NCBI RefSeq assembly: GCF_963667685.1
Contig: NZ_OY763930.1
Coordinates: 155,001-219,000, forward strand
Reading direction: 5' to 3'
From: Maridesulfovibrio sp.
Lineage (GTDB): Bacteria; Desulfobacterota; Desulfovibrionia; Desulfovibrionales; Desulfovibrionaceae
DNA length: 64,000 nt
Position numbers and translations under genes: made by a program. Every line of letters starts with the position of its first letter. Within the stretch, counting starts at the first letter, position 1. Positions 11,464 to 41,027 of this stretch are shown here, piece by piece. Below the pieces are notes generated by a model. The model was not told where the DNA came from. It saw only the letters and a list, made by a program, of their open reading frames with translations, and searched no databases.

Positions 11464-11470
11464 CTTTAAT

Positions 11471-11486
11471 GCGCTTCGCGCTTTTT
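11471..11486 (+). terminator. Short terminator-like hairpin after the EamA gene
   Basis: A 4-bp GCGC/GCGC stem with a TTC loop is followed by TTTTT. It is weak but well placed. Confidence 0.45.
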
Positions 11487-11499
11487 ATTGAATAGATTT

Positions 11500-11712
11500 T
11501 GCCTCCGGCGGCCCTGTCAGGGAACCCTTCGGGGGCTTAAACCCTTTTTATTGCGCCCCTTCCTGGGGCTTACCCCTTCGGGCGGTGCTTTGAGGCACCG
11601 GGCAAATCCGCTTTGCTGCGGATTTGTGGCAAAAGGGTTTGTTTCACTGTCGCCATCTCTAAGACTCGCGGAAGACCGCTCGCCTAAGCGCTGATGCAAG
11701 AATCCAAAAACT
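11500..11712. repeat. Hairpin-rich dispersed intergenic repeat (composite)
   Basis: This non-coding stretch starts with GCCTCCGGCGGCC and contains many short hairpins, including GCCCC-TTCCT-GGGGC and a perfect 9-bp stem CAAATCCGC/GCGGATTTG. Its outer parts (CTTAAACCCTTTT and GCAAAAGGGTTT, then AAGAATCCAAAA) match the compact palindromic repeat at 15133-15170, as if about 80 bases of further hairpins had been inserted at its centre. It resembles REP/BIME-type repeats. The small open frames here are low-complexity by-products. Confidence 0.6.
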
Positions 11713-11800
11713 TTTTAGCAAGGCTTCGCCGACAGGCGACTTAACACCGCATTTAATTTTTTAAAAAGAACACATCCCCCAACTAAAACGCGTTTGGGTA

Positions 11801-11895
11801 GAGGGGATGGGGATTCTTAAGGGGAAGGGGAGACCCCCTTTTGGCGTTAGCAAAGGGGGGCTCCCCTTCCCCTTAAGCCGCCGGAGGCACAACAA
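11801..11895 (+). promoter_or_regulatory. Hairpin leader with ribosome site before addA-like gene
   Basis: A long hairpin (11817-11876) has a perfect 16-bp outer stem, one A-G mismatch and eight more pairs, closed by a loop TGGCGTTAGC. It is followed directly by GCCGCCGGAGGCACAACAA and the ATG, so GGAGG lies a few bases from the stem. A related leader precedes the addB-like gene with a different stem sequence but the same loop and the same ribosome-site block. The structure could control translation or termination. Confidence 0.6.
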
Positions 11896-14800
11896 ATGCT
11901 CAAACAAGTAAAAGCTTCAGCCGGGTCAGGTAAGACATACGAACTTACGGCCCGCTTCTTATCTCTTTTAGCCGGAGCACAGGAAGAGGATTCTATCCCT
12001 GTATGCAAAAGCTCACAGGGCAAGGGATACTGCTGGCCAGAAATCATGGCTGTAACATTCACCAACAAAGCCGCAGCCGAAATGAAGGAACGCGTTATCC
12101 GTTCGCTGAAAAACCGTGCTCTTGATATTCAAGGAGACGGACTTGGCGCGGACTGGAAACCGCAGGAAGCCAAAAGACAGCTCATCCCGATCCTTCAACG
12201 CTACAACCGATTGAACATTCGTACCATCGACAGTTTGCTTAACCTGCTGGTGCGCATCTTCGCACTTGAGCTGGGCCTTAACCCTGAATTCGAACTTCTC
12301 TTTGAACCGCAGGCTCTGTTCGAGCCGAACTTCAACAAATTTCTGGCCCAATGCGAAGAAGGCGACCTGCGGCGCAAGGAACTTCTGGATGATGCTGTGG
12401 ACAGCCTTGTGCTCAAAGAAGAGAAACAGGGGTTCTGGCTTGCTGAACAAATGCGCATGCGGCTGCTATCCATACTGACCCACGTTATCGACCATCCTGC
12501 GGAACGCCTTACCGATCAGGAAGAAATCGCCGGATTGCTGCAAGTTGAGTACGATGCTTTCCAGAAAGCGGTGCGTGATATCTCCGGGGTAATTGATACG
12601 GACAAGCTGGCTGCTTCGGCACACCTGAATAAATACCTTGCCCATGCCGCGACTATTGATTTTATGGACCTGCCCAAAGAATCGACCATGCTCGCCAAAG
12701 ACAGCTTCGAGGATTGCGTAAATAAAAAATCCAAGGGTGATATCAATAGCTACCACGAAAAAATTTACGCCGAGCTTAAAAAGGCTCATGAGATCTACCG
12801 CGATAAAGCGACTATTCTGCGCGGGGCGTACGCACTGGCACCGTTCGTGCGCATTGTAGAGGAAATACGCGCCGATATTATCGAATACCAGACCCGCAAC
12901 GGCATGTTGCTCAGTGCAGACCTGCCCAAGGTTGCCAGCTATGTGCTGCAAGGCGAAAGCGCGCTGCCCGATGCCTTCTGCCGCATGGGTTCACGCTTGC
13001 ATCACCTGCTTATCGATGAATTTCAGGACACCAGCCTCGCCCAGTGGCAGGCCATGATTCCGCTGGCTATGGAATGCTTGTCCAAAGCGGGCAGCCTCTT
13101 CTACGTGGGCGATGTCAAGCAGGCCATTTACAGTTGGCGAGGCGGACGTTCAGAACTTTTCGATGAAGTTGGCGAAGAGCCGGAACTTAATATGCTTTCC
13201 GAGTTTATCCCGGCCAATCTGGATTACAACTGGCGCAGCCTTGAGCATGTCATTGGATTCAACAACGAATTCTTTGATGCACTGGCGGATTACGACCTCG
13301 CTCTGGAACTTTCGGAAAAGCTTTACCCCAATGGCCCGCAGGATCAGCAGATTGAACTGGCCCAGCGCATTTCCCATTCATTTTATGAAGCATCGCAACA
13401 ACTGCCGCCCAATCAGGACCGCGCCGGTGGATACGTAAGGCTTCAACGCATATTTGCTTCCAGTGCGGCTGAAATTGTGGAAGAAACACGCCGCAACTTT
13501 GACCAGCTCATGGAAGAACTGCTACCCCGACGCGAATACCGCGACATTTGCGTGCTGGTCCGCTCCAACGGGCATGCCCAGTTGATATGTGACTGGCTGG
13601 TGGAAAAATCCATCCCGGTGATCACCGAAAACAGCCTGCAACTGGATCGCCACCCCATCGTGCGCCAGATGGTTTCGCTGCTTAAATTTCTTGATTACCC
13701 GCAGGACGACCTTGCTTTCCTTGAATTCATCTGCGGACAGGAAATATTCGGCACTATATCCGGTATTGCCCATGAAGACCTTTTTGAGTGGCTGGCCGGC
13801 CGGGACAAAGGACCGCTGTACCGCCGCTTCTCAGAGCAATACCCGGATTTCTGGAACACCCATATCTCCCCTTTTATCCGCAAGTCGGGCTTAATGACTC
13901 CTTACGACCTTGCCAGTGAGATGGTCAGCCGCTTCAAGCTCATCGAGCACTATCCGCTGGATGAATTATACATCCGCCGTTTCCTTGAGGTGGTTCACCT
14001 CGCCGAAGAAAAACGGGGCACTTCGCTGGCCGCTTTTCTCGATTTCTGGGAACTCTCCTCCGCCGAAGAGAAAGTCCCACTGCCGGAATCAGTCAATGCG
14101 GTACGCATTATGACCATTCACAAATCAAAAGGACTGGAATTTCCGGTCATAGTGGTACCCTTCCACAACTGGTCAGTCTCCGGGCCGGATGCTTCGCTGG
14201 CTGATATCGAAGTGGACGGACAAACCATGCTTACGCCCATGAGCAGCGCGCTCGGTGATATCTACTACGAAAACCGGACCCGCATGTTCAGCGAACAGCT
14301 AAACCTGCTCTATGTGGCATGGACCCGTGCAGGACAGGAACTGTACGGATTCCTGCCGTCTGAAAAGACACGCGGCGTCACCCCGGCACTGACGGCAATT
14401 GACCTTATCCTTGAAGATAGATTCAATGATTTGGGATTGCTGGAGTACGGACTCAAGCCGCAGGCAACAGAGCCGGAGCCGGAAGTAACGGAAATTATCA
14501 CACAAAAACAGTGTGATGATTTCTGTACGCAGGAAGACGCTGCTTCATCCCTTCAAGAACCGGAACTTATGGCCTGGTTGCCGAGACTGCGAGTCTACCG
14601 TCACAACCTTGAAGACTATTCCTACGATGCGCGCATGCGAGGCGAACTGGCCCACAATGCCATGGAGAATCTGATCCTCACCGGTAATGATGCAGCCGAC
14701 TGCCGGCGCAGTGCCGAAGCCGCTTTCGCCAAGTTCCCGGCAGTGACCGAAGAGGAAGATGTACTCGTTCCGCAGGTAACAGAAATGGCTCTCTGGGCTT

Positions 14801-15075
14801 TATCCGAACCGGATATCAGGACTGCCATTGAGCATGGCAGACCGGAAGTGGCCATAATGGATGCCAAAGGTGAAACACACCGTGCCGACCTGCTTCTTCT
14901 GGAAGAGAAACAGGCACTGGTAGTGGAATACAAAACCGGACAGCCCTCACCGGAGAATGAAAAGCAGGTCAAAAGATACCTGAAGCTGCTGCGTGAAATG
15001 TATGGCGATAAAAAAGAATTACGCGGTTTACTGGTATATCTTGACGGCAAATTCACAAGAGAAATCAATTTATGA
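11896..15075 (+). CDS. addA: AddA-like UvrD-type helicase/nuclease
   Basis: The 1059-residue protein has SF1 helicase motifs: Walker A ASAGSGKT at residues 7-14, Walker B/motif II with IDEFQDT near 373, motif III region VGDVKQAIYSWRGG, and motif VI region LLYVAWTRA. A C-terminal RecB-type nuclease domain follows, with GELAHNAME and the catalytic D...EYK of RADLLLLEEKQALVVEYKTG near residue 1010. AddAB/RecBCD enzymes process double-strand ends for RecA loading. The addB-like partner lies downstream after a 268-base repeat-bearing gap. Distinguishing it from a lone RecB-like helicase rests on this neighbour. Confidence 0.85.
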   Translation: MLKQVKASAGSGKTYELTARFLSLLAGAQEEDSIPVCKSSQGKGYCWPEIMAVTFTNKAAAEMKERVIRSLKNRALDIQGDGLGADWKPQEAKRQLIPILQRYNRLNIRTIDSLLNLLVRIFALELGLNPEFELLFEPQALFEPNFNKFLAQCEEGDLRRKELLDDAVDSLVLKEEKQGFWLAEQMRMRLLSILTHVIDHPAERLTDQEEIAGLLQVEYDAFQKAVRDISGVIDTDKLAASAHLNKYLAHAATIDFMDLPKESTMLAKDSFEDCVNKKSKGDINSYHEKIYAELKKAHEIYRDKATILRGAYALAPFVRIVEEIRADIIEYQTRNGMLLSADLPKVASYVLQGESALPDAFCRMGSRLHHLLIDEFQDTSLAQWQAMIPLAMECLSKAGSLFYVGDVKQAIYSWRGGRSELFDEVGEEPELNMLSEFIPANLDYNWRSLEHVIGFNNEFFDALADYDLALELSEKLYPNGPQDQQIELAQRISHSFYEASQQLPPNQDRAGGYVRLQRIFASSAAEIVEETRRNFDQLMEELLPRREYRDICVLVRSNGHAQLICDWLVEKSIPVITENSLQLDRHPIVRQMVSLLKFLDYPQDDLAFLEFICGQEIFGTISGIAHEDLFEWLAGRDKGPLYRRFSEQYPDFWNTHISPFIRKSGLMTPYDLASEMVSRFKLIEHYPLDELYIRRFLEVVHLAEEKRGTSLAAFLDFWELSSAEEKVPLPESVNAVRIMTIHKSKGLEFPVIVVPFHNWSVSGPDASLADIEVDGQTMLTPMSSALGDIYYENRTRMFSEQLNLLYVAWTRAGQELYGFLPSEKTRGVTPALTAIDLILEDRFNDLGLLEYGLKPQATEPEPEVTEIITQKQCDDFCTQEDAASSLQEPELMAWLPRLRVYRHNLEDYSYDARMRGELAHNAMENLILTGNDAADCRRSAEAAFAKFPAVTEEEDVLVPQVTEMALWALSEPDIRTAIEHGRPEVAIMDAKGETHRADLLLLEEKQALVVEYKTGQPSPENEKQVKRYLKLLREMYGDKKELRGLLVYLDGKFTREINL

Positions 15076-15132
15076 TGCACTGCGTATTTTTAAGAATGAC
15101 AGACAAAGCCTTCGGCGACCCTGCCGGGGGCC

Positions 15133-15170
15133 TTAAACCCTTTTGCAAAAGGGTTTAAGAATCCCAAAAC
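15133..15170. repeat. Dispersed palindromic repeat, copy 1
   Basis: The 38-base block begins TTAAACCCTTTTGCAAAAGG and ends AATCCCAAAAC; it recurs exactly at 40990-41027. Its core, TTAAACCCTTTT and its complement around GC, is self-complementary. It lies after the addA-like stop and could also act as a transcription attenuator. Confidence 0.7.
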
Positions 15171-15253
15171 CTTATATTGAGCTTCGCTGGTTGTTTATGC
15201 AAAGACAACCGTTATGCGCTACTTGCGAAGCATAATTAACACGTCTTTGAAAG

Positions 15254-15343
15254 AGAGGGGATGGGGTCTGGGGAAGTGGAGAGAAAACTTTGGGCGTTAG
15301 CAACATTTTCTCTCCACTTCACCAGCCGCCGGAGGCACAACAA
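15254..15343 (+). promoter_or_regulatory. Hairpin leader with ribosome site before addB-like gene
   Basis: A hairpin (15268-15325) has a perfect 15-bp stem GAAGTGGAGAGAAAA/TTTTCTCTCCACTTC, extended by CTGG/CCAG across one mismatch. The loop region GGGCGTTAGCAA matches the addA leader loop. GCCGCCGGAGGCACAACAA then leads into the ATG. The upstream flank AGAGGGGATGGGG is also shared. Stem sequence differs from the first copy while pairing is kept. Confidence 0.6.
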
Positions 15344-18247
15344 ATGAATAATAAAAATATACAGATAATATCGTGGAAAGAGGATTTCATTGAAAACCTT
15401 GCCACTACTATAATTAACGATTCAGACGGGGACTTAAGCCGGGTTACGGTTATTGTCCCGCACCACCGTCCGGCGCGTTATTTGAAGAAAGCGCTTGCTG
15501 CATCGGACCAGCTTTCCAAACCGTGCATTCTGCCGGAGATCTATTCTTTTTCAGACTTTGTCTCTTCGTTAATCCCGAAACTGACCGCAGAATTCCCGCG
15601 CAAAATCGGCAAGCTGGATCAAGTAGGCCTGCTCTTTGATATTATTGAAAAGCTGCGCGGAGAATCCACTGGAATGCTGTCAAAGATGCCTGCGGACCTG
15701 CAATTGTTTTTCCCATGGGGAACACGGCTTGCTTCGCTGCTGGAAGACCTGTTGCGTCAGGACATCAAACCGCGCAACCTGACCATGTTGCAGGGCGAAG
15801 TGCTTGAATGGGCAGCCGCCCTGCTGGAAGAGCTGGAAATAATTTTCGTACGCTACGTGGAAGAGCTTGAAAGACGCGGCTGGACCACATCCGGTTTGGA
15901 AAACCGCACTCTGGTGGAAAATCTCGGCGGCCTTGATGAAATCCTGCAAGACCGCAAACTTTATCTCGCGGGGTTCTACGGCGTCAGCGGTGTGGAAGAC
16001 ATGTTCTTCCGCTACCTGTGGGAAAACCTCGGACTGCAAGTTATCTGGCACAGTGATCCCGGGCTGGCTGAGGGGCGCAAGGGACATTTCGCCGTGCGTG
16101 AACACCGCCTATGGTTACAGAATTGGAAAGCCCAAGCGATTTCAGATCATACCGCCGAGGGTAGCTGCGACCTTCCAGCACTGAAATTTTTTGAAGGCTT
16201 CGACCGCCATTCCCAGTTATCAGCCATGCGCGACGAACTCTGCTCGCAAAAAGTGGAAGGATGCGCTGTAGTCCTGCCGGACACATCTCTGCTGCTCCCG
16301 GTCATGCATCACCTGCCGGAACAGGACATCAACATCAGTATGGGCTACCCGCTTGAGCGCTCTGCACTGAACGGTCTGCTTGAAGCCACCCTCAAACTTC
16401 AGGAAAACCGTAACGGCCAGAACTTCTACTGGAAGGATATCCTAGCCCTTATCCGCCACCCCTACCTAAAAATGCTTGAAGTGGACGGCGACCAGCCCCT
16501 GCGAACAATTTTCCACCAATGGGAAAATGCGCTGCGCCACGGTGCACCCTATGCGGATATAAAAGATTTTGTCCCGGTCTACAGCGACGACAATGGTAAT
16601 CTGGTCGATAATCCTGAGATTACGGAAGAGCTGCGCGCAGAAGCAGTACGGATCTGCATTGACGGATTCAAGGATATCGAAACTCTTTCAGAGCTTGCGG
16701 ACAGTCTGCAGGCCATGGCTGAAATGCTGCGCCGGCGTGGTGGAACGCTCTGGAACCGCTACCTGCTGGACTCTGAATGTCTGTTCCGGCTTATGAATGA
16801 AGTTATCCCTGAACTGCGTGAAAGCTCGATCAGCAATGAAATTTTCGGGCAGTCACTCTGCTTTTCCATTTTCCGCCAACTGCTTTCATCACAACGTGTA
16901 TCCTTTGAGCCGGACCCCATTTCCGGCATGCAGGTACTGGGTATGCTGGAAAGCCGTCTGCTGAATTTCAAGCGCACCTTCATCCTGGATACCGTGGATG
17001 ATAAACTTCCCGGAACGGATCCCTACGATCCCCTGCTCCCGGACCAGCTGCGCCATCTGCTGGACCTCCCTGATTCACGGGAAAGGGAATCCGTAGCCAC
17101 CTACAACTTCTACCGCTTGATCATGGGCAGCAAGGAATCCTGCATATTTTACCAAAGCGGTGTGCAGCCGGGATTACTGGATTCAAAATCAATTCGCTCC
17201 CGGTTCGTAGAGCAACTGCTCTGGGAAATAGAACAACAGCGCAAGGAAATCATCACTCCGGGAGAAGATTTTCCGCTCAAGGCGGTCAACTTTCCTGTCG
17301 GGGCCATCGTCAACAGCCCGGCGGCCATTCCCAAAGAACCGTTGCAGGATAAATTGCGCAACCTTCTAAAATTCAAGGGACTCTCACCTTCTGCGATTGA
17401 TTGCTACGTGGGCTGCCCAAAACTATTCTTTTTCCGCTACCTTTCCAATGTGCGCGAAAGTGTTAGTGTGGATACAGAAGGCGACCGCGCCGGATTCGGC
17501 GACCTGATCCATTCCGTTCTCAAGGACTTTCTTGAACCACACCTGCACAAGGATATTTGTGGTGCGGACTTGAGTCCCAATGATTTACAAGACCTGTTCA
17601 TGCTCCGGCTGGAAAGGGATTCCCTCTATACCAACCTTGCATATGACATTAAAAAGTCCCTTGAACAGGCCGGGAAAAATAGACTGGCCCTGTTTCTGAA
17701 AAATCTTAAGCCGACCAGAATTGTAGAACTTGAATCCGACTCACAGGCCGAACTTGAAATAGACGATTTTAAAGTACGCATTCATGGCCGTGTAGACCGT
17801 GTTGATGAGCGGGGCGCCGAACGCCATGTCCTCGATTACAAGACCGGACGGCTGCACCTGCCCCGCCGCTCTTTCTGGGAAGATGAGCAAATATGGGGAC
17901 CGGTCCTTGATGACCCTCAAGCCATCCATCATGACGGAACCATCTTTCTGGAGATGATCAAGAACAGCGCGGACAGCCTACAGCTGCCACTTTATCTACT
18001 CATGGATCATCATACGTCAGGAGAGATACCACGGCAGGCTGCACTGGTTGAACTTCTAACCGATGGCCGTGAAATGGGCTTGTTCGATTCGAAAACCAGT
18101 GATGAAGACCGCGAGGAAATAATTGAAACCAAAATTCCGGCGCTGACCAGACTCATCATCAACAACATGCTGGTTGAATCAGATTTTAAACCTATCCGCT
18201 CAAATATGTGCCAATGGTGTGCGTACCGAGAAGCGTGCGGAAGCTGA
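15344..18247 (+). CDS. addB: AddB-like nuclease with Fe-S-type cysteines
   Basis: I start at the ATG preceded by the GGAGG block, not at an in-frame codon 54 bases upstream that lies inside the hairpin loop; this gives 967 residues. The C-terminal third is a PD-(D/E)XK nuclease: GDLIHSVLKDFLE, then RIHGRVDRVDERG and HVLDYKTGR near residue 830. Four cysteines typical of AddB/Cas4-type Fe-S nucleases are present, one in the DCYVGCPK segment (near 687-691) and three in CQWCAYREAC at the C-terminus. No Walker A motif is seen at the N-terminus (IVPHHRPARYLKK), so it is likely a helicase-dead subunit working with the AddA-like protein. Confidence 0.82.
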   Translation: MNNKNIQIISWKEDFIENLATTIINDSDGDLSRVTVIVPHHRPARYLKKALAASDQLSKPCILPEIYSFSDFVSSLIPKLTAEFPRKIGKLDQVGLLFDIIEKLRGESTGMLSKMPADLQLFFPWGTRLASLLEDLLRQDIKPRNLTMLQGEVLEWAAALLEELEIIFVRYVEELERRGWTTSGLENRTLVENLGGLDEILQDRKLYLAGFYGVSGVEDMFFRYLWENLGLQVIWHSDPGLAEGRKGHFAVREHRLWLQNWKAQAISDHTAEGSCDLPALKFFEGFDRHSQLSAMRDELCSQKVEGCAVVLPDTSLLLPVMHHLPEQDINISMGYPLERSALNGLLEATLKLQENRNGQNFYWKDILALIRHPYLKMLEVDGDQPLRTIFHQWENALRHGAPYADIKDFVPVYSDDNGNLVDNPEITEELRAEAVRICIDGFKDIETLSELADSLQAMAEMLRRRGGTLWNRYLLDSECLFRLMNEVIPELRESSISNEIFGQSLCFSIFRQLLSSQRVSFEPDPISGMQVLGMLESRLLNFKRTFILDTVDDKLPGTDPYDPLLPDQLRHLLDLPDSRERESVATYNFYRLIMGSKESCIFYQSGVQPGLLDSKSIRSRFVEQLLWEIEQQRKEIITPGEDFPLKAVNFPVGAIVNSPAAIPKEPLQDKLRNLLKFKGLSPSAIDCYVGCPKLFFFRYLSNVRESVSVDTEGDRAGFGDLIHSVLKDFLEPHLHKDICGADLSPNDLQDLFMLRLERDSLYTNLAYDIKKSLEQAGKNRLALFLKNLKPTRIVELESDSQAELEIDDFKVRIHGRVDRVDERGAERHVLDYKTGRLHLPRRSFWEDEQIWGPVLDDPQAIHHDGTIFLEMIKNSADSLQLPLYLLMDHHTSGEIPRQAALVELLTDGREMGLFDSKTSDEDREEIIETKIPALTRLIINNMLVESDFKPIRSNMCQWCAYREACGS

Positions 18248-27100: not shown

Positions 27101-28078
27101 ATGAATATCCCTATGGAACCAATCCGGCTCACTGCAATGATGAGCACTCAGATGCTGCCAAAAGCATTGGTGGATTTCGCTACCTTAGCGGCAATCGGCG
27201 CGCCGGTCATGGCTGTGATTCTTGAAGTTACGGCGAAGGCACGCAAAAAAGTTTTTTATGACAAACTTGCGCAGCAGGTTATGGCAATGACTCTTGTCCT
27301 ATACCTGCTATTTATTCTTTGCCTTGGCAGTGCAGCAGCTTTCTTCTGCCGCCAGATACCATGGCTGAAGGACTGGTTCATAAACCCTGCCTCCCCGATG
27401 ATGATGTTCTACATTACACTGGGTATAGCACTGGCAGGACTTGTACCATACAAGTTTTCCTGGAAAAAACTTAAGAAGAAAAAAGCCCTGCACATATTGC
27501 TAGGTTCCATCGGGGCGATCGGTGGTATCGCAACTATCCATGTCGCTACCGTTATTATGCAGAAGTTCTTCACCCTGCAAATGCAAGGGGCCACTCCGGT
27601 TGTTCCGGATATTCCGTTTTACACACATTTTCAAACAGTCCCCGGAAAAGCGGGACTATGTCTTGCCGGAATATACCTGATAATGTCCATGGCCTTCGCA
27701 GCATCTGCATCCGGTCTCTACCTTGTGCTCCGACGCAATAAGGACGACTTCGGACGGGATTACTACAAATTCAGCCTGCCGGTTGTCTCACGCTGGGCAC
27801 TTTTACCTACTCTGGCACAGAGTGCAGCCTCCGCAGGGGTAATATACTATATCTGCGGGCTGAATATCACTCCCCTTTACAGCAATATTCCTGTAGCTAT
27901 CAGCTTCGGAGTATCACTGTTGCTGACACTTATATGCTGCGCAATATGGATTGTAGCCATGCGGAGCGAAACTCCCATGCGCCACAAAATAGGACTCGGC
28001 CTCACACCGTTGCTGGCGGTTCTTGCGCACGCAACGCTCATGGCCGGAACTATGAACCTCTATTTAAGTATTTCCTAA
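27101..28078 (+). CDS. Multi-spanning membrane protein of unknown function
   Basis: I do not recognise the family. The 325-residue protein has about eight hydrophobic segments, for example MAMTLVLYLLFILCLGSAAA, MMFYITLGIALAGLVPY, HILLGSIGAIGGIATIHVAT and LLTLICCAIWIVAM, joined by short basic loops. There is no recognisable cofactor or catalytic motif; a few histidines (IHVAT, YTHFQTVPG, LAHATLMAG) lie near membrane faces and could bind haem, but this is speculative. It stands alone, divergent from cpoB, and ends at a clear terminator. Confidence 0.75.
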   Translation: MNIPMEPIRLTAMMSTQMLPKALVDFATLAAIGAPVMAVILEVTAKARKKVFYDKLAQQVMAMTLVLYLLFILCLGSAAAFFCRQIPWLKDWFINPASPMMMFYITLGIALAGLVPYKFSWKKLKKKKALHILLGSIGAIGGIATIHVATVIMQKFFTLQMQGATPVVPDIPFYTHFQTVPGKAGLCLAGIYLIMSMAFAASASGLYLVLRRNKDDFGRDYYKFSLPVVSRWALLPTLAQSAASAGVIYYICGLNITPLYSNIPVAISFGVSLLLTLICCAIWIVAMRSETPMRHKIGLGLTPLLAVLAHATLMAGTMNLYLSIS

Positions 28079-28100
28079 ATACTGACGTCATAACAAATTT

Positions 28101-28134
28101 AAAGGCTTTTCCATGCAGGAAAAGCCTTTTTTTA
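28101..28134 (+). terminator. Rho-independent terminator of membrane protein gene
   Basis: A 12-bp stem AAAGGCTTTTCC/GGAAAAGCCTTT with a 5-base loop is followed by a T run. Confidence 0.8.
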
Positions 28135-28180
28135 TTATTAGCTTGTTCAGCCTATACCGAGCCGCTTCAAAAGCCAATAA

Positions 28181-28214
28181 AAAGCCCCCTGACGCATGAA
28201 CATCAGGGGGTTTT
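28181..28214 (-). terminator. Rho-independent terminator of the che operon
   Basis: An 8-bp GC-rich stem CCCCCTGA/TCAGGGGG, extended by A-T pairs, lies 25 bases after the cheA stop; the minus strand continues with TTTTTATTGG. Confidence 0.75.
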
Positions 28215-28239
28215 AATTTCTTATCTAATTTTCTAAAAA

Positions 28240-31176
28240 TTACTGGATGGATCCGCTTTTTACGGTTGCCATACTGTAAATTTCATGAGGGTCAAGGATA
28301 AGCACAACGCTACCGTCACCCATAATAGTTGCGCCGGACACACCCTTGAGATCAAAACCGTTTAGGTAATTACCAAGCGGCTTAATAACGATCTCCTGAC
28401 GCTCAAGCAATCTGTCAACAACAAGTCCCAGCCGGCGCTCGTTATCATGGACGATAACAACCGGCAGAACCTCACGGTCCGGGTCACTGACAGGCTGTTC
28501 CAGCAACTCGGCTAATTCAGCAATACCGAGGACTTCCCCACGTAAAGTGACAGCCTTACGATTATTGACTTCGGTAAGTCTTTCAGCTTCGATCTTGGTA
28601 GTTTCAGAAACAGCATCAAGAGGAATGGCGTAGTTTGCGCCATTGATCTGAACCATGAGCGCATCAATGATGGCCAGAGTCAGAGGCAGTGTCAGGGTAA
28701 ACTTGGACCCCTTGCCCACTTCAGATGCGATATGAACACTACCTTTAAGGTCTTTGATGTTGTTCCGTACAACATCCATCCCAACTCCTCGTCCGGAAAT
28801 ATCAGTGACCTTCTCAGCTGAGGAAAATCCCGGAGCGAAAATCAGTTCAATAGCTTCCCGGTCATCAAGGTTTCGGGCTTCTTCCGGTGAAATGAGTCCC
28901 TTCTTGATGGCGACGTTGCGCATCTTTTCAGGATCAATTCCACGTCCATCATCTTCTACCTCAATGGCGACAGAGTTACCCTTGTGATAAGCACGCAACC
29001 AGACATGACCCTGTGAAGTTTTGCCGTTGGCGATACGCTCTTCCTCCGGCTCAAGTCCATGGTCTACAGAGTTTCTTATCAGATGGACAAGAGGATCGCC
29101 GATTTCCTCGACAACACTCTTATCGAGTTCAGTCTCTTCGCCTTCGGTAATCAACTCAACCCGCTTGCCGCTCTTGCGGCTGAGGTCGCGAACCAAACGG
29201 GGAAATCTGGAGAAAACAGTCTGAACAGCGACCATACGGACCTTCATGATCGTATCCTGCAGGTCATCGGAAATTCTGGACAACGCGTATGTTGTCTCTG
29301 TCAGCTGCTGGGCAACGACAGGAACTTCAAGATGGCCTTCCTCAAGACCACGGGCCAGCATCGTGTAACGTCCCCTGCTGATAATAAGCTCACCAATCAG
29401 GTTCATAAGATGGTCAAGCTTCTGGTGGTCTACCCTGATTGTAGACATGGCTTTTGGTTTTGAGCTCTTAACCGGGGCGCCTGTTGCAGCCTTAGGCTTA
29501 GCTTTGGCTTCAATCGGCTTTACAGCCGTCTTGGGCGGAGCCGGCTTAGCAGGAGCTTTAGCCACAGGCCTAGCTTCTGCCTTCGGAGCTGGTTTAGGGG
29601 CTTCTTGCGGTTCCGGTTTCGGTTCCGGCTTTGGAGCTGGGGCAGGCTTAGGCTTAGGCTTAGGCGCGGGCGCGGGAGCCGGGGCAGGCTTAGGAGCTTC
29701 CTCCGGCTCAGACACCGCTTCCTCAGCGTTATCCTCGCCAACCTTAAGCTCGGCAATGGCTGAATCAATCATTTCTTCGATGATTCCGCATTCCTGTCTC
29801 AACAGGTCTAGCATGAGCCCAAAATCCATATCAGAAGAGCGGGCCTGATCTACCAGACCGGCTGTACGCTCAGCGTATTCCTTCAAGCTATCAAAACCCA
29901 TGTAGCCGGCTGAATTCTGGATGGAAACAAGACTTCTGTAGAGCCCGTCAATGTAATCTTTTTGGGTGGCATCCTCGCCAAGAGTTTTCAAAGCCAGACC
30001 AATGTTATCTATCTGCTGGTGAACTGTCTGTTCGAAAATTGCAACATCTTCGGGATCAAGATTGTCTTCTTCCGGATCTATCTCTTCCAACGGCTCTTCT
30101 GTGTCCTCTTCAGGCTCTTCTTCCAGCTCTTCGGAAGCTACAACTTCACCCTTTTCCACCGCTTCCTGCAACGGAGTAACCAGCTGATCTATATCCAGAG
30201 GCTGAACATCTCCTGTCTTCGGTGAAACATGGGCTATAAGGGATTCAATGCCATCTACTACAGCGAGCAGCAAATCGATCATGGAACGTGTTGCGGCCAC
30301 TTCCCCCTTGCGAACTTTGTTCAGAAGGGTTTCTGCTTCGTGGGTCAATGAATTCAATTCACGAAATCCTATGATTCCGCTGTTCCCCTTAAGATTATGG
30401 AAATACCTGAAGATATCATTGATAAGATCGTCATTATCTTCATGATCCTGCTCAAGTTCCAATAACCCGTTTGTCAGATTCTCGATGATTTCATGGGCTT
30501 CTTCGAGAAAATCAGCAAGATGACCTTCACCTACAGTTGTCAACTTGTAAGGTTCGACGTCCTCATTCACGATAGCTACAAACTGAAAAGCCTGTTTACG
30601 TCCTGTGTCGGCCATAGTGGACTCCTGATCAATTTGGGTCTGCGGCAAATCTTCTTCGACTTCAACTTCACTTTCTTCGACCGGCTCAGGCTCAGTCACT
30701 TCCAGCTCTGGTTCCGGTTCAATCTCAGGCTCAGGTTCCGGCTCAGGTGCTGCTTTAACCTGATTCACCGGGGCAGGGGTTTCACCGGCCATTATAGCAT
30801 CAATTCTTCCAATTGTTTCAGAGGTATTAACTTCACCCTCATTGCCAAGTTCATCTAAATTATCAATCAACTTGCGCAACAAATCTGTCGCAGCAAGAAT
30901 GACATCCATAATTTCAGACGTAACTGCAATTTCACCCTTACGGAGTTCATCAAGAATGTTTTCCGCTTTATGGGCCAGCCCGTTAATAATATTTAACCCG
31001 AGAAAGCCTGATGCCCCCTTAAGGGAATGCATCGGCCGAAAAATTTCATTGAGAAGATCAAGATTCTCGGGATTGTTCTCAAGCTCAAGCAGGTTGGGTT
31101 CAATCGTTTCGAGATGCTCTTTAGCTTCAATAATGAAATCTGCAAAAATTTCAGGATCCATGAAATCCTGGCTCAT
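28240..31176 (-). CDS. cheA: Chemotaxis histidine kinase CheA with multiple Hpt domains
   Basis: The 978-residue kinase has two N-terminal Hpt domains with intact phospho-histidines: H50 in FRPMHSLKGASG and H260 in FRYFHNLKGNSG. A third Hpt-like segment (about residues 375-480) has Val417 at the His position (YRSLVSIQNSAG). A Pro/Ala/Lys-rich linker spans about 490-572. The dimerisation helices start near 579 and are followed by the HATPase domain (LIRNSVDHGLEPEEER, DDGRGIDPEKM, SGRGVGMDVVR) and a C-terminal CheW-like domain. It autophosphorylates in response to chemoreceptors and passes phosphate to CheY and CheB. It is the last gene of the che operon. Confidence 0.95.
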   Translation of the reverse strand: MSQDFMDPEIFADFIIEAKEHLETIEPNLLELENNPENLDLLNEIFRPMHSLKGASGFLGLNIINGLAHKAENILDELRKGEIAVTSEIMDVILAATDLLRKLIDNLDELGNEGEVNTSETIGRIDAIMAGETPAPVNQVKAAPEPEPEPEIEPEPELEVTEPEPVEESEVEVEEDLPQTQIDQESTMADTGRKQAFQFVAIVNEDVEPYKLTTVGEGHLADFLEEAHEIIENLTNGLLELEQDHEDNDDLINDIFRYFHNLKGNSGIIGFRELNSLTHEAETLLNKVRKGEVAATRSMIDLLLAVVDGIESLIAHVSPKTGDVQPLDIDQLVTPLQEAVEKGEVVASEELEEEPEEDTEEPLEEIDPEEDNLDPEDVAIFEQTVHQQIDNIGLALKTLGEDATQKDYIDGLYRSLVSIQNSAGYMGFDSLKEYAERTAGLVDQARSSDMDFGLMLDLLRQECGIIEEMIDSAIAELKVGEDNAEEAVSEPEEAPKPAPAPAPAPKPKPKPAPAPKPEPKPEPQEAPKPAPKAEARPVAKAPAKPAPPKTAVKPIEAKAKPKAATGAPVKSSKPKAMSTIRVDHQKLDHLMNLIGELIISRGRYTMLARGLEEGHLEVPVVAQQLTETTYALSRISDDLQDTIMKVRMVAVQTVFSRFPRLVRDLSRKSGKRVELITEGEETELDKSVVEEIGDPLVHLIRNSVDHGLEPEEERIANGKTSQGHVWLRAYHKGNSVAIEVEDDGRGIDPEKMRNVAIKKGLISPEEARNLDDREAIELIFAPGFSSAEKVTDISGRGVGMDVVRNNIKDLKGSVHIASEVGKGSKFTLTLPLTLAIIDALMVQINGANYAIPLDAVSETTKIEAERLTEVNNRKAVTLRGEVLGIAELAELLEQPVSDPDREVLPVVIVHDNERRLGLVVDRLLERQEIVIKPLGNYLNGFDLKGVSGATIMGDGSVVLILDPHEIYSMATVKSGSIQ

Positions 31177-38767: not shown

Positions 38768-39856
38768 TTAACTTCTACCATACCGCAGATCATGCATTCT
38801 GCGTCCGGCCCTTGAAATCTCACTGGCAAGAGCATGAATATTCCAGATAAAAGCTGAAATATTATTGCGCCGTTCCAATGGAACATCTTCAAAGTAACCG
38901 CGAACACGAGCTTCGCTGACCGCAGACATGAAGTCATCGATAGACTTCTCGAAATCCGGTTCATCAGGACAGTCTTCCGGACTCAGCGAATACTTCTCCA
39001 GCCATTCGTAGTGCTCAGCTGTTGCAACCAGAATGTCGGTCATAGCTTGCTCAATTGACGGCAACGGGCCGCCATACCCGCGGCGAATGATGGTGGACAT
39101 AGTCATAAGGATACTGTGCATACGGCTGAATGACCTGATCAAACGGTTCAGTTCGTTGCGCTGCCAGCCTTGCAATCCCGGCTCGGCAGCCGCTTCACTA
39201 AAAGATTCCGCACAGGTATCAAGCATGGTGGACGCATCAATTCTGCTCTGCACCAAAACTGATTCGCTTACCCCGCCATGCAGATATGATTCGGTCAATT
39301 TCTTAAAATGAACTGATTGCAATTCAACGAGTGAAGCCATTTTCGTACGTAAGTTTTTGCGGGCCATATTCGGCCAGACCCCGAAAGAAGCGGCTACGCC
39401 GATAAGTATCCCAAGCCCGGTATCGACAATCCGCTCCACCCCGAACTGCCAGCCATCCGTAAAAATAATCCCCAATATCAGAATAACCCCGATACTCAGA
39501 CAACATGAGAACGCCGTGTAGCTGAACACCCTGACCAGAATCATCAAGAAGAATGAAAGGATAACCAGAAAAAACAACACCGTATTGGTCGGATTAAAAA
39601 ACAAGATCACGACACCGATAGCAGCGCCGGTGGCAGTGCCCCAGAATCTTTTCCAACCCAATCTCAGAGTACCACCGACAGAGGGACGCATGACCACAAT
39701 CACACTGACCGGAAGCCAGACAGCGTGCTGCAATTCCAGAAATTGCGCCGCCATAATAGCGAAAGTGATAGCAACAGCGGCCTTGAGAGCGTGGCGAAAT
39801 GGCACAGCATCCAGACGAAATTCTTTTTTCAAAGTGTGGAAGGCATCAGCGAACAC
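38768..39856 (-). CDS. FUSC-family membrane protein (second of pair)
   Basis: The 362-residue protein has an N-terminal membrane block (LKAAVAITFAIMAAQFLEL, VWLPVSVIVVMRPSVGGTL, W-K-R-F-WGTATGAAIGVVIL) and a helical cytoplasmic C-terminal half, as in FUSC/ArAE exporters. It starts at a GTG inside the end of the upstream FUSC gene, with AAAGGAGG well placed before it, so translation is coupled (11-base overlap). It is closer in sequence to the FUSC gene at the window start than to its overlapping partner. It may form a hetero-oligomer with that partner. Confidence 0.82.
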   Translation of the reverse strand: MFADAFHTLKKEFRLDAVPFRHALKAAVAITFAIMAAQFLELQHAVWLPVSVIVVMRPSVGGTLRLGWKRFWGTATGAAIGVVILFFNPTNTVLFFLVILSFFLMILVRVFSYTAFSCCLSIGVILILGIIFTDGWQFGVERIVDTGLGILIGVAASFGVWPNMARKNLRTKMASLVELQSVHFKKLTESYLHGGVSESVLVQSRIDASTMLDTCAESFSEAAAEPGLQGWQRNELNRLIRSFSRMHSILMTMSTIIRRGYGGPLPSIEQAMTDILVATAEHYEWLEKYSLSPEDCPDEPDFEKSIDDFMSAVSEARVRGYFEDVPLERRNNISAFIWNIHALASEISRAGRRMHDLRYGRS

Positions 39857-40949
39857 TGCACACGCCTCCTTTACAGAAAAGCTTGCTCATCTCCGCAAAC
39901 TCAATACTCAGATTCCTCAGCCCGTAAACAGCTCCCCACGCCTCAAGAAATTCATCACGCAATTCGTCATCGCGATTGTATGCGCCAAGGCGCAGCAGTT
40001 CGCTTTCAAGCTCTGCAATACCTTCATCAAGCCCACGCAAGTCAACTTCACCTTTTCCGGTGGAAATTCCAGCTGCAAGAACATCAAATGCTACAGCGCT
40101 ACGTCCGGTAAGATCACTGAACTTGAAGCGCATATCCTTAAATACCGCACTATGCTCCGCGAATTTGCGGCTATTAGATAACCCTACAACAGCCTCAATC
40201 ATTCGCACCAAGAGCGCGTACAGGCCCGAAGGGCCTTCATAACTACCCAGTTCTTTCACAGGGTCTACGTTCATGGCTTCCATGAATCTCCGATAACGCC
40301 GCACAGACTCCACTGAGCGATCATGAATCTCTGCGATCTGCTGTAAATCTTCCTTACGTCCTGAGGATGAGGCAACCGCGCGGAAGTAATCTCCAATATC
40401 AGTTAGGGCAACAGCTCCAGCACGAGTCAGAATCTTTTCAGGATTAATGGGCCACAGATAAAAAACAAAAACATACGCAACGGTTGATCCGAACAACACA
40501 GCCCCGGACCGCTCAAGGCCTACCAACAAAGTATCCGGCGACGTTAAAGCCAGCAAGTTGACGATAAGCGTTCCTATAGCAGCTGTCCCGGCGGCCACAC
40601 CCAAAACCTGAACGAAGAAAACTGCAAAAGCCAGAAGAAACAGATATAGTTCAAGTCCGATATTGTGATTACCAATGACTGTTGAGCATGGAACAAGAAA
40701 CATTACAGCAAAGGTCAGCCAGCGAGCTACAGCCTTACGCTTGGTGAGAGTACTCCCTGCGCGGAAAACCACTACAACCATAGAACCGTAAACAGACCAT
40801 TGCACAAACTTGGTACTCATGCCCACCATATAGGCCAGCATCAGAGCAACAAGACAAGCACATATGGATTTGGCCGCATACTTGGTCATAAACAGACCAG
40901 GATCAACAGGCCTGATAAATATTCGATAAAATTCAGATACTAATTTCAT
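39846..40949 (-). CDS. FUSC-family membrane protein (first of pair)
   Basis: The 367-residue protein has hydrophobic segments KSICACLVALMLAYMVGM, WSVYGSMVVVVFRAG and several more before residue 165, then a soluble helical region with a typical FUSC linker. It is more diverged than the downstream copy: the motif W-x-R-F/GT is replaced by KRKAVARWLTF. GCCGCCGGAGGCAT, part of a dispersed intergenic repeat, supplies its ribosome site directly before the ATG. It is the first gene of a predicted three-gene membrane operon. Confidence 0.75.
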   Translation of the reverse strand: MKLVSEFYRIFIRPVDPGLFMTKYAAKSICACLVALMLAYMVGMSTKFVQWSVYGSMVVVVFRAGSTLTKRKAVARWLTFAVMFLVPCSTVIGNHNIGLELYLFLLAFAVFFVQVLGVAAGTAAIGTLIVNLLALTSPDTLLVGLERSGAVLFGSTVAYVFVFYLWPINPEKILTRAGAVALTDIGDYFRAVASSSGRKEDLQQIAEIHDRSVESVRRYRRFMEAMNVDPVKELGSYEGPSGLYALLVRMIEAVVGLSNSRKFAEHSAVFKDMRFKFSDLTGRSAVAFDVLAAGISTGKGEVDLRGLDEGIAELESELLRLGAYNRDDELRDEFLEAWGAVYGLRNLSIEFAEMSKLFCKGGVCSVR

Positions 40950-40951
40950 AT

Positions 40952-41027
40952 GCCTCCGGCGGCGCTGCAGCGGCTCTCAGCCGGGATTCTTAAACCCTTT
41001 TGCAAAAGGGTTTAAGAATCCCAAAAC
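40952..41027 (-). repeat. Dispersed repeat leader with palindrome, copy 2
   Basis: Reading on minus, a perfect 36-base palindrome (41020-40985, GATTCTTAAACCCTTTT and its complement about GC) is followed by GC-rich sequence and GCCGCCGGAGGCAT before the FUSC ATG. The 38 bases at 40990-41027 are identical to 15133-15170. The hairpin plus GCCGCCGGAGGC plus start-codon layout parallels the addA and addB leaders. Confidence 0.65.

What the first reader, a model, noticed from the sequence alone, without database searches (positions are those of the whole stretch)
11801..15343. Covarying hairpin leaders before both addA-like and addB-like genes
The sequence shows two leaders with the same order: AGAGGGGATGGGG, a long hairpin whose apical region is GGCGTTAGCAA, then GCCGCCGGAGGCACAACAA and the ATG. 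The stems are unrelated in sequence (GGGGAAGGGGAG-type versus GAAGTGGAGAGAAAA) but both pair almost perfectly. Conserved loop and flank with changed but paired stems is what selection on RNA (or single-stranded DNA) structure produces. Because the two genes encode partner subunits, a shared element could tune their ratio or respond to a common regulator. A dispersed repeat that happens to supply ribosome sites is the main alternative.
Basis: partly seen in the sequence, partly recalled or inferred. Interest (0 to 1): 0.7.

Follow-up and report, generated by a model that had tools for sequence, protein, structure and literature searches.

The report
Gene-edge hairpin repeats across a genome
The two matching hairpins in front of a pair of DNA-repair genes are copies of a hairpin repeat scattered at gene edges in this genome and its relatives, and its end can serve as a ribosome-binding site; they do not look like a private switch for those two genes.

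Summary
Both leaders exist, with paired stems, the same 13-nt 5' flank, GGCGTTAGCAA apex and 23-nt 3' stretch. The addAB-specific reading fails. The 3' box GCCGCCGGAGGC occurs 87 times in this genome (reversed control 0) and 317 times in one relative. In my gene of 87 copies are intergenic; the next gene edge on the box side is a start for 44 and a stop for 41, often within 10 nt. Architecture: RGRNTC, a variable palindrome, GCCGCCGGAGGCA. Four outer stems combine with shared inner stems and apices and stay paired. Twelve of 17 same-genus genomes have no element between addA and addB (nine with overlapping genes); five carry one. Mismatch contexts and one flipped loop hint at palindrome upkeep as DNA, but raw G-T counts exceed A-C. 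Best reading: a REP-like mosaic repeat of this bacterial family, with no Y1 transposase match in this genome, whose box supplies the Shine-Dalgarno site when it lies before a gene. Its role at gene ends is open.

The parts
11464..11799 (-). rest of the gap before addA: inverted element next to the upstream gene's end (GCGC second module 11464-11500, box GCCTCCGGCGGC 11501-11512, T-type arms 11531-11548 and 11629-11640 with other hairpins nested between, GGCTTCGCCG near 11730)
11800..11816 (+). 5' flank AGAGGGGATGGGG plus RGRNTC box (GGATTC 11811-11816)
11816..11877 (+). addA leader hairpin: TTAA outer stem, GGGGAAGGGGAG middle, GGCGTTAGCAA apex at 11843-11853
11877..11889 (+). 3' box GCCGCCGGAGGCA; GGAGG at 11883-11887 lies 8 nt before ATG 11896
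11896..15075 (+). addA-like gene (UvrD helicase + PDDEXK_1)
15076..15253 (-). left half of the addA/addB gap: inverted, diverged box GCCTTCGGCGAC 15108-15119, T-type hairpin 15132-15159, then other sequence
15254..15268 (+). 5' flank AGAGGGGATGGGG plus TC (RGRNTC box GGGGTC 15263-15268)
15269..15324 (+). addB leader hairpin: TGGGG outer stem, GGCGTTAGCAA apex at 15293-15303
15325..15337 (+). 3' box GCCGCCGGAGGCA; GGAGG at 15331-15335 lies 8 nt before ATG 15344
15344..18247 (+). addB-like gene (PDDEXK_1)
40951..40963 (-). another copy of the box, with a T-type hairpin (GGGATTCTTAAACCC/GGGTTTAAGAATCCC) at higher coordinates, before the minus-strand gene 39846-40949

Best explanation
Both leaders are copies of a dispersed, mosaic, palindromic repeat of this bacterial family, most abundant in a seven-genome clade of this genus. 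A copy has a 5' box (RGRNTC), a variable palindrome, and a 3' box GCCGCCGGAGGCA whose end faces a gene edge. Shown: copy number, gene-edge placement and orientation, pairing across stem types, presence or absence at the same gene junctions between species. Inferred: (1) where a copy lies before a gene, GGAGG in the box acts as that gene's Shine-Dalgarno site, so an element can separate overlapping genes such as addA and addB without silencing the second; (2) stem diversity arises mainly by exchange of whole inner palindromes between copies, and arm correction by DNA template switching keeps the arms matched; (3) spread does not need a RAYT-type Y1 transposase in the present genome. At gene ends the hairpin may act as E. 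coli REP hairpins are reported to do near stop codons, but nothing here tests that.
For: GCCGCCGGAGGC: 87 copies, reversed control 0; 317 in G003. GCCGCCGGAGGCA per genome: 34-206 in the seven-genome clade, 0-34 in the other ten of the genus, 0-46 in other genera of the family, 0-2 in other families of the order; reversed controls at most 2 per genome. Gene calls: 85 of 87 intergenic; 44 starts, 41 stops. Of 52 copies without the second module, 35 (15 of 29 start side, 20 of 23 stop side) lie within 10 nt of the gene on the box side, against 3.5 expected by random placement in the same gaps. G003: 37 of 37 examined copies intergenic; without the second module 14 of 16 stop-side and 4 of 6 start-side copies within 10 nt. 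Divergent gaps hold 1 of 85 (G000) and 2 of 35 (G003) copies against 46 of 159 background gaps. Hairpin in 95 of 150 distinct copies against 9 of 450 shuffles; 56 end exactly at the box. Swap test. Apex GGCGnnAGC with outer stems TGGGG, CAGAG, CAAAG and, in addA only, TTAA. Empty and filled addA/addB junctions. Distinct G-T and A-C contexts 9 vs 7 or 15 vs 14; flipped loop in L204. No Y1_Tnp match in G000 or G003.
Against: Raw mismatch counts do favour G-T over A-C on the box strand (23 vs 7 and 34 vs 17 under the two scorings), although distinct contexts do not. In other genera 7 of 23 copies fell inside called genes, and only 3 of 9 start-side and 1 of 5 stop-side copies were within 10 nt (the caller was trained on this genome). 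The caller rewards a Shine-Dalgarno motif, so start-side distances are partly circular; stop-side distances are not. For copies with the second module the 10-nt rule fails (3 of 33, 1.8 expected). Only 46 of 86 distinct own-genome copies pass my hairpin score within 80 nt. No target-duplication rule or autonomous partner was found; genes enclosed by four wider box pairs look ordinary by eye. G004 and G008 have Y1_Tnp matches, so a lost donor is not excluded. The sites before addA and near 40.95 kb are occupied in most relatives that could be compared, which could reflect function. No expression data.
Confidence: 0.75

Rival explanations
1. A cis-acting RNA element shared by addA and addB sets their ratio or answers a common regulator through the conserved apex.
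For: Both leaders share apex, flanks and SD spacing and fold well.
Against: The longer apex pattern has 14 matches in this genome (addB's own copy, ending AAC, is not among them) and 46 in 10 genomes; 22 of 30 fetched loci carry the box, at starts and ends of other genes (by eye). Relatives lack the addB element or carry a stem without the apex.
Confidence: 0.05
2. The hairpin is selected as mRNA structure at gene edges generally: a 5' leader hairpin before starts and a 3' stabiliser or ribosome-stalling hairpin after stops.
For: Gene-edge placement on both sides, paired stems, few copies in divergent gaps, raw G-T excess. E. coli REPs within 15 nt of a stop codon are reported to stall ribosomes (passages of PMC12306157 citing an earlier study).
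Against: The box faces the gene at starts and stops alike, so the transcribed strand differs between the classes; in stop-side copies the G-T pairs of the box strand (6 vs 3 A-C, or 10 vs 8) would be A-C mismatches in the mRNA. Copies are absent from many orthologous gaps.
Confidence: 0.3
3. The hairpins are ordinary intrinsic terminators that have become repetitive.
For: Stop-side copies sit just after stop codons. 63 of 80 hairpins have a T-rich stretch within 25 nt on that strand (no null was run). The scan marks a broken T-type arm at 11531-11546, after the upstream gene, as terminator-like (9 sites in the region against 5.7 in shuffles).
Against: 0 of 80 have 5 T in 8 nt directly after the stem on either strand. 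The scan marked neither leader hairpin. By eye, ordinary terminators lie between the elements in 3 of the 10 pairs printed.
Confidence: 0.1
4. Paired copies are the terminal inverted repeats of a MITE that inserts as one unit.
For: Close pairs are outward facing: 8 of 11 in G000, 13 of 14 among the 100 copies listed for G003, none inward. In G008 a 226-nt unit with both ends fills the addA/addB junction.
Against: By eye the centres of the 10 pairs printed are different DNA. Only 16 of 87 copies in G000 are in such pairs (exact 12-mer only). No transposase was recognised between four wider pairs (by eye).
Confidence: 0.12

Closest known systems
REP / BIME elements of E. coli and relatives (repetitive extragenic palindromes, interspersed mosaic elements)
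   Same: Short, intergenic, palindromic, mosaic, tens to hundreds of copies, rare in divergent gaps, some close to stop codons (stop-codon distance from passages of PMC12306157; the rest recalled).
   Different: About as often next to gene starts, with an SD-like end; variable stems between fixed boxes; no Y1_Tnp match in this genome or in the richest relative.
Rhizobial intergenic mosaic elements (RIME)
   Same: Large palindromes in a modular intergenic repeat (recalled; one paper using the term was seen only in a search listing).
   Different: No sequence comparison was made; a different class of bacteria.
Hairpin elements with compensated stems, as in some mitochondrial genomes
   Same: Conserved ends, stems that differ but stay paired (recalled).
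   Different: Bacterial, tied to gene edges; no comparison made.

Membership tests
REP/BIME-like extragenic palindromic repeats | Many interspersed intergenic copies | tested here: met
   87 copies, 85 intergenic; G003 317 copies, 37 of 37 examined intergenic; in other genera 16 of 23 examined
REP/BIME-like extragenic palindromic repeats | Palindromic hairpin in the copies | tested here: met
   95 of 150 distinct copies at score 9 or more vs 9 of 450 shuffles; 55 of 150 fall short
REP/BIME-like extragenic palindromic repeats | Mosaic of recurring modules | tested here: met
   Four outer stem kinds, several inner stems and apices among 102 distinct hairpins, 17 of them outside the four kinds; second GCGC module in 33 of 85 copies
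RAYT-linked REPs | Y1 (TnpA-REP) transposase in the genome | tested here: not met
   PF01797: 0 matches in G000; 2 of 11 genus genomes have matches (G004, G008), not G003
RAYT-linked REPs | GTAG-type tetranucleotide at the hairpin foot | not tested
   Feature recalled; the conserved foot here is RGRNTC / GCCGCC
MITE | Terminal inverted repeats around a shared interior | tested here: not met
   Interiors of the 10 pairs printed look unrelated, by eye
MITE | Target site duplication | tested here: inconclusive
   ATGA lies on both sides of the addA/addB insert in G000 and G008, but both genes need it
Intrinsic terminator | T tract directly after the stem | tested here: not met
   0 of 80 on either strand; neither leader hairpin marked
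Curated Rfam RNA family | Score above gathering threshold | tested here: not met
   Only a tRNA in the window; 10 sub-threshold miRNA hairpin matches at the two stems

The most novel reading that the evidence does not exclude
A mobile hairpin that reaches gene edges preferentially and can insert exactly at the stop/start overlap of coupled genes, bringing its own Shine-Dalgarno box so that translational coupling is replaced by independent initiation; its stem evolves by swapping whole inner palindromes, so that pairing is kept without selection on RNA.
Probability: 0.3. Interest if true: 0.7.

Novelty: new variant of a known kind. Interest (0 to 1): 0.5.

Why it matters
If right, a palindromic repeat family has spread to tens or hundreds of gene edges per genome in one clade and supplies initiation sites as it goes, which changes how operon junctions such as addA/addB are translated. 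The paired-stem pattern, often read as RNA structure under selection, may here come from DNA-level copying between palindromes; that is a caution for covariation-based RNA discovery. The gene-edge rule, with the same box facing starts and stops, is unexplained and testable.

Tried and rejected
Rfam at both thresholds gave nothing relevant. Phage and plasmid collections gave no blastn match to the addA/addB gap. Four wider box pairs enclose genes that look ordinary by eye, no transposase. GGCGTTAGCAA alone is not enriched in the window (14 matches with up to 2 mismatches, shuffles mean 16.8) or clearly in the genome (5 vs 4 for the reversed control); only the longer apex pattern is. A likeness of the apex to integron attC cores was considered from memory and dropped. 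Base-pairing of a 5' box with a 3' box on one mRNA was considered and not tested. Paper searches listed no paper that I recognised as describing this element; I read passages of PMC1852404 (it lists D. desulfuricans G20 among genomes rich in intrinsic terminators) and passages, abstract and outline of PMC12306157, the rest as listings only. The four papers holding the 12-mer or its complement (listing only) are, by title, on cancer pharmacogenetics, vaccinia motility, human translation initiation and Caulobacter BR-bodies. R-scape and a covariance model were not run.

Scripts redone: one search failed; one search read minus-strand loci unturned and was replaced; one search's swap test could not handle short stems and was replaced; one search's G-T count was biased by its scoring and was replaced; one search's gene calls were replaced. 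The confidence was lowered from 0.78 to 0.75 on re-reading the raw counts.
Full report
1. The observation. Both leaders are as described: the same 13-nt 5' flank, the same 11-nt apex, and a 23-nt identical 3' stretch that includes the ATG. The leaders fold better than any of 200 shuffles (z -5.1 and -4.5). The genes are addA-like and addB-like by Pfam. The stems are not wholly unrelated: both contain a GGGGAAG(G/T)GGAGA block.

2. Not private to addAB. GCCGCCGGAGGC occurs 41 times forward and 46 reverse in the 4.42-Mb genome; read backwards it occurs 0 times. I fetched 68 stretches, which with the window cover all 87 places. With a simple codon-model gene caller, 85 of 87 copies are intergenic. 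On the side the box faces, the next gene edge is a start for 44 and a stop on the other strand for 41. Of the 52 copies without a second GCGC-hairpin module, 35 lie within 10 nt of that gene (15 of 29 starts, 20 of 23 stops); random placement in their own gaps predicts 3.5, with a maximum of 12 in 10,000 simulations. For the 33 copies with the second module it is 3 against 1.8, so the rule fails there. The caller gives a bonus for a Shine-Dalgarno motif, which biases start-side distances; stop-side distances are free of that. In G003 the 37 copies examined (of 317) behave alike: all intergenic, and without the second module 14 of 16 stop-side and 4 of 6 start-side copies are within 10 nt. Five copies in the syntenic stretches of four other relatives are also intergenic, four of them within 10 nt. 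In other genera the picture is weaker: 16 of 23 intergenic, 7 inside called genes, 3 of 9 starts and 1 of 5 stops within 10 nt. Divergent gaps hold 1 of 85 and 2 of 35 copies, against 46 of 159 background gaps over 60 nt.

3. Anatomy. A hairpin scoring 9 or more lies within 80 nt upstream of the box in 95 of 150 distinct copies (own 46 of 86, G003 29 of 36, syntenic relatives 4 of 5, other genera 16 of 23), against 9 of 450 shuffles. In 56 the right arm ends exactly at the box. The left foot is RGRNTC (ggattc, ggggtc, agagtc). Among 102 distinct hairpins close to the box, outer stems TTAA, TGGGG, CAGAG and CAAAG cover 85. The apex GGCGnnAGC occurs with TGGGG (9, addB among them), CAAAG (2), CAGAG (1) and TTAA (1, addA itself), and in 4 unsorted ones. 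The pattern TTNGGCGNNAGCAAA has 14 matches in this genome and 46 in 10 genus genomes (reversed controls 1 and 5). Of 30 such loci fetched, 22 have the box within 60 nt with at most 2 mismatches; random 60-nt windows of the same loci give 69 of 3000. By eye these lie before and after various genes.

4. Do the arms co-vary? For copies whose outer 9 nt match at 8 or more, own arms score 8.63 of 9 against 6.17 when swapped (68 of 150 copies). Within types: F 8.56 vs 8.25, T 8.86 vs 8.22, S 8.2 vs 7.03; permutations reaching the observed value 0, 0 and 2 of 2000. Without preselection: 10, 0 and 0 of 2000. Copies are related, so these are not independent trials. Among non-Watson-Crick pairs on the box strand, raw counts favour G-T over A-C (23 vs 7, or 34 vs 17 under laxer scoring), while distinct sequence contexts are nearly even (9 vs 7, 15 vs 14); S-type copies share one inherited G-T. 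In stop-side copies the mRNA is the other strand, where the counts read 3 G-U against 6 A-C, or 8 against 10. So I see no G-U excess in mRNA sense at gene ends, but numbers are small. In one relative's copy (L204) the loop is reversed relative to its flanks. I read this as palindromes exchanged as units and repaired arm from arm as DNA. That is inference and does not exclude RNA selection.

5. Relatives. The window is largely collinear with five same-genus genomes at about 67-86% nucleotide identity per block. Reading for the addA/addB junction in 17 genomes (own included): nine (G005, G006, G007, G009, G011, G012, G013, G014, G015) have ATGA-overlapping genes, G002 overlaps as TAATG, G016 and G004 have a 2-nt gap, and G000, G001, G003, G008 and G010 hold an element (G010's contig is cut upstream). 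In the addB tree the last five fall in a supported seven-genome clade with G016 and G004; G016 pairs with element-bearing G010 at 89/93 support, so one gain alone does not explain the pattern without a loss or exchange. Before addA, G016, G003, G004 and G001 carry a T-type or shortened T-type stem where G000 has the long chimera, and G008 has none. Of 25 gaps compared across six genomes, 6 show the box or a near form in at least one genome; some comparisons failed. Copies of GCCGCCGGAGGCA range from 0 to 206 within the genus.

6. What it is. A REP-like mosaic repeat of this bacterial family. Five contigs of two named Desulfovibrio MAGs hold exact matches to one 25-nt T-type form, as does one contig of a MAG labelled Oscillospiraceae; the collection may leave out near records. 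PF01797 has no match in G000 and G003 and has matches in G004 and G008. The GGAGG in the box lies 3-12 nt from the called start in 17 of 29 start-side copies without the second module (with the caller's bias noted above), and 8 nt for addA and addB. So it plausibly serves as the SD. At gene ends the function is open. E. coli REPs near stop codons are reported to stall ribosomes (passages of PMC12306157). A direct T tail is missing in 80 of 80 hairpins, which speaks against a plain intrinsic terminator.

7. Limits. No expression data; gene calls are approximate; not all copies were examined in relatives; copies that differ from the exact 12-mer were mostly not counted; several readings were made by eye.

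Noticed in passing
window 11531-11640; also L004 and L063: Hairpin-rich DNA (AAATCCGC..GCGGATTT, GGTGC..GCACC, GCCCC..GGGGC) sits in the loop of a T-type hairpin; similar stretches appear in L004 and L063.
   Followed up: no
33 of 85 intergenic copies, e.g. window 11464-11500: A second module, roughly GCGAAATCnnnTCATCAAAAAGCGCGAAGCGCATCAAA, follows the box and separates it from the gene.
   Followed up: partly
L204 (G004:C1:402046-402060): The apex of a long hairpin is reversed relative to its flanks, as if the loop had been inverted between the arms.
   Followed up: partly
G003, gap orthologous to window 28078-28240: Both edges of a convergent gap carry outward-facing elements where relatives have ordinary terminators or other sequence.
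   Followed up: no
L184 (JAFQAX010000037.1): A MAG labelled Oscillospiraceae holds an exact 25-nt T-type match; possibly a misbinned contig.
   Followed up: no
close pairs in G000 and G003: Copies under 400 bp apart face outward in 8 of 11 (G000) and 13 of 14 (100 listed copies of G003) pairs; the remaining four are tandem at 61-67 bp and none face inward.
   Followed up: partly
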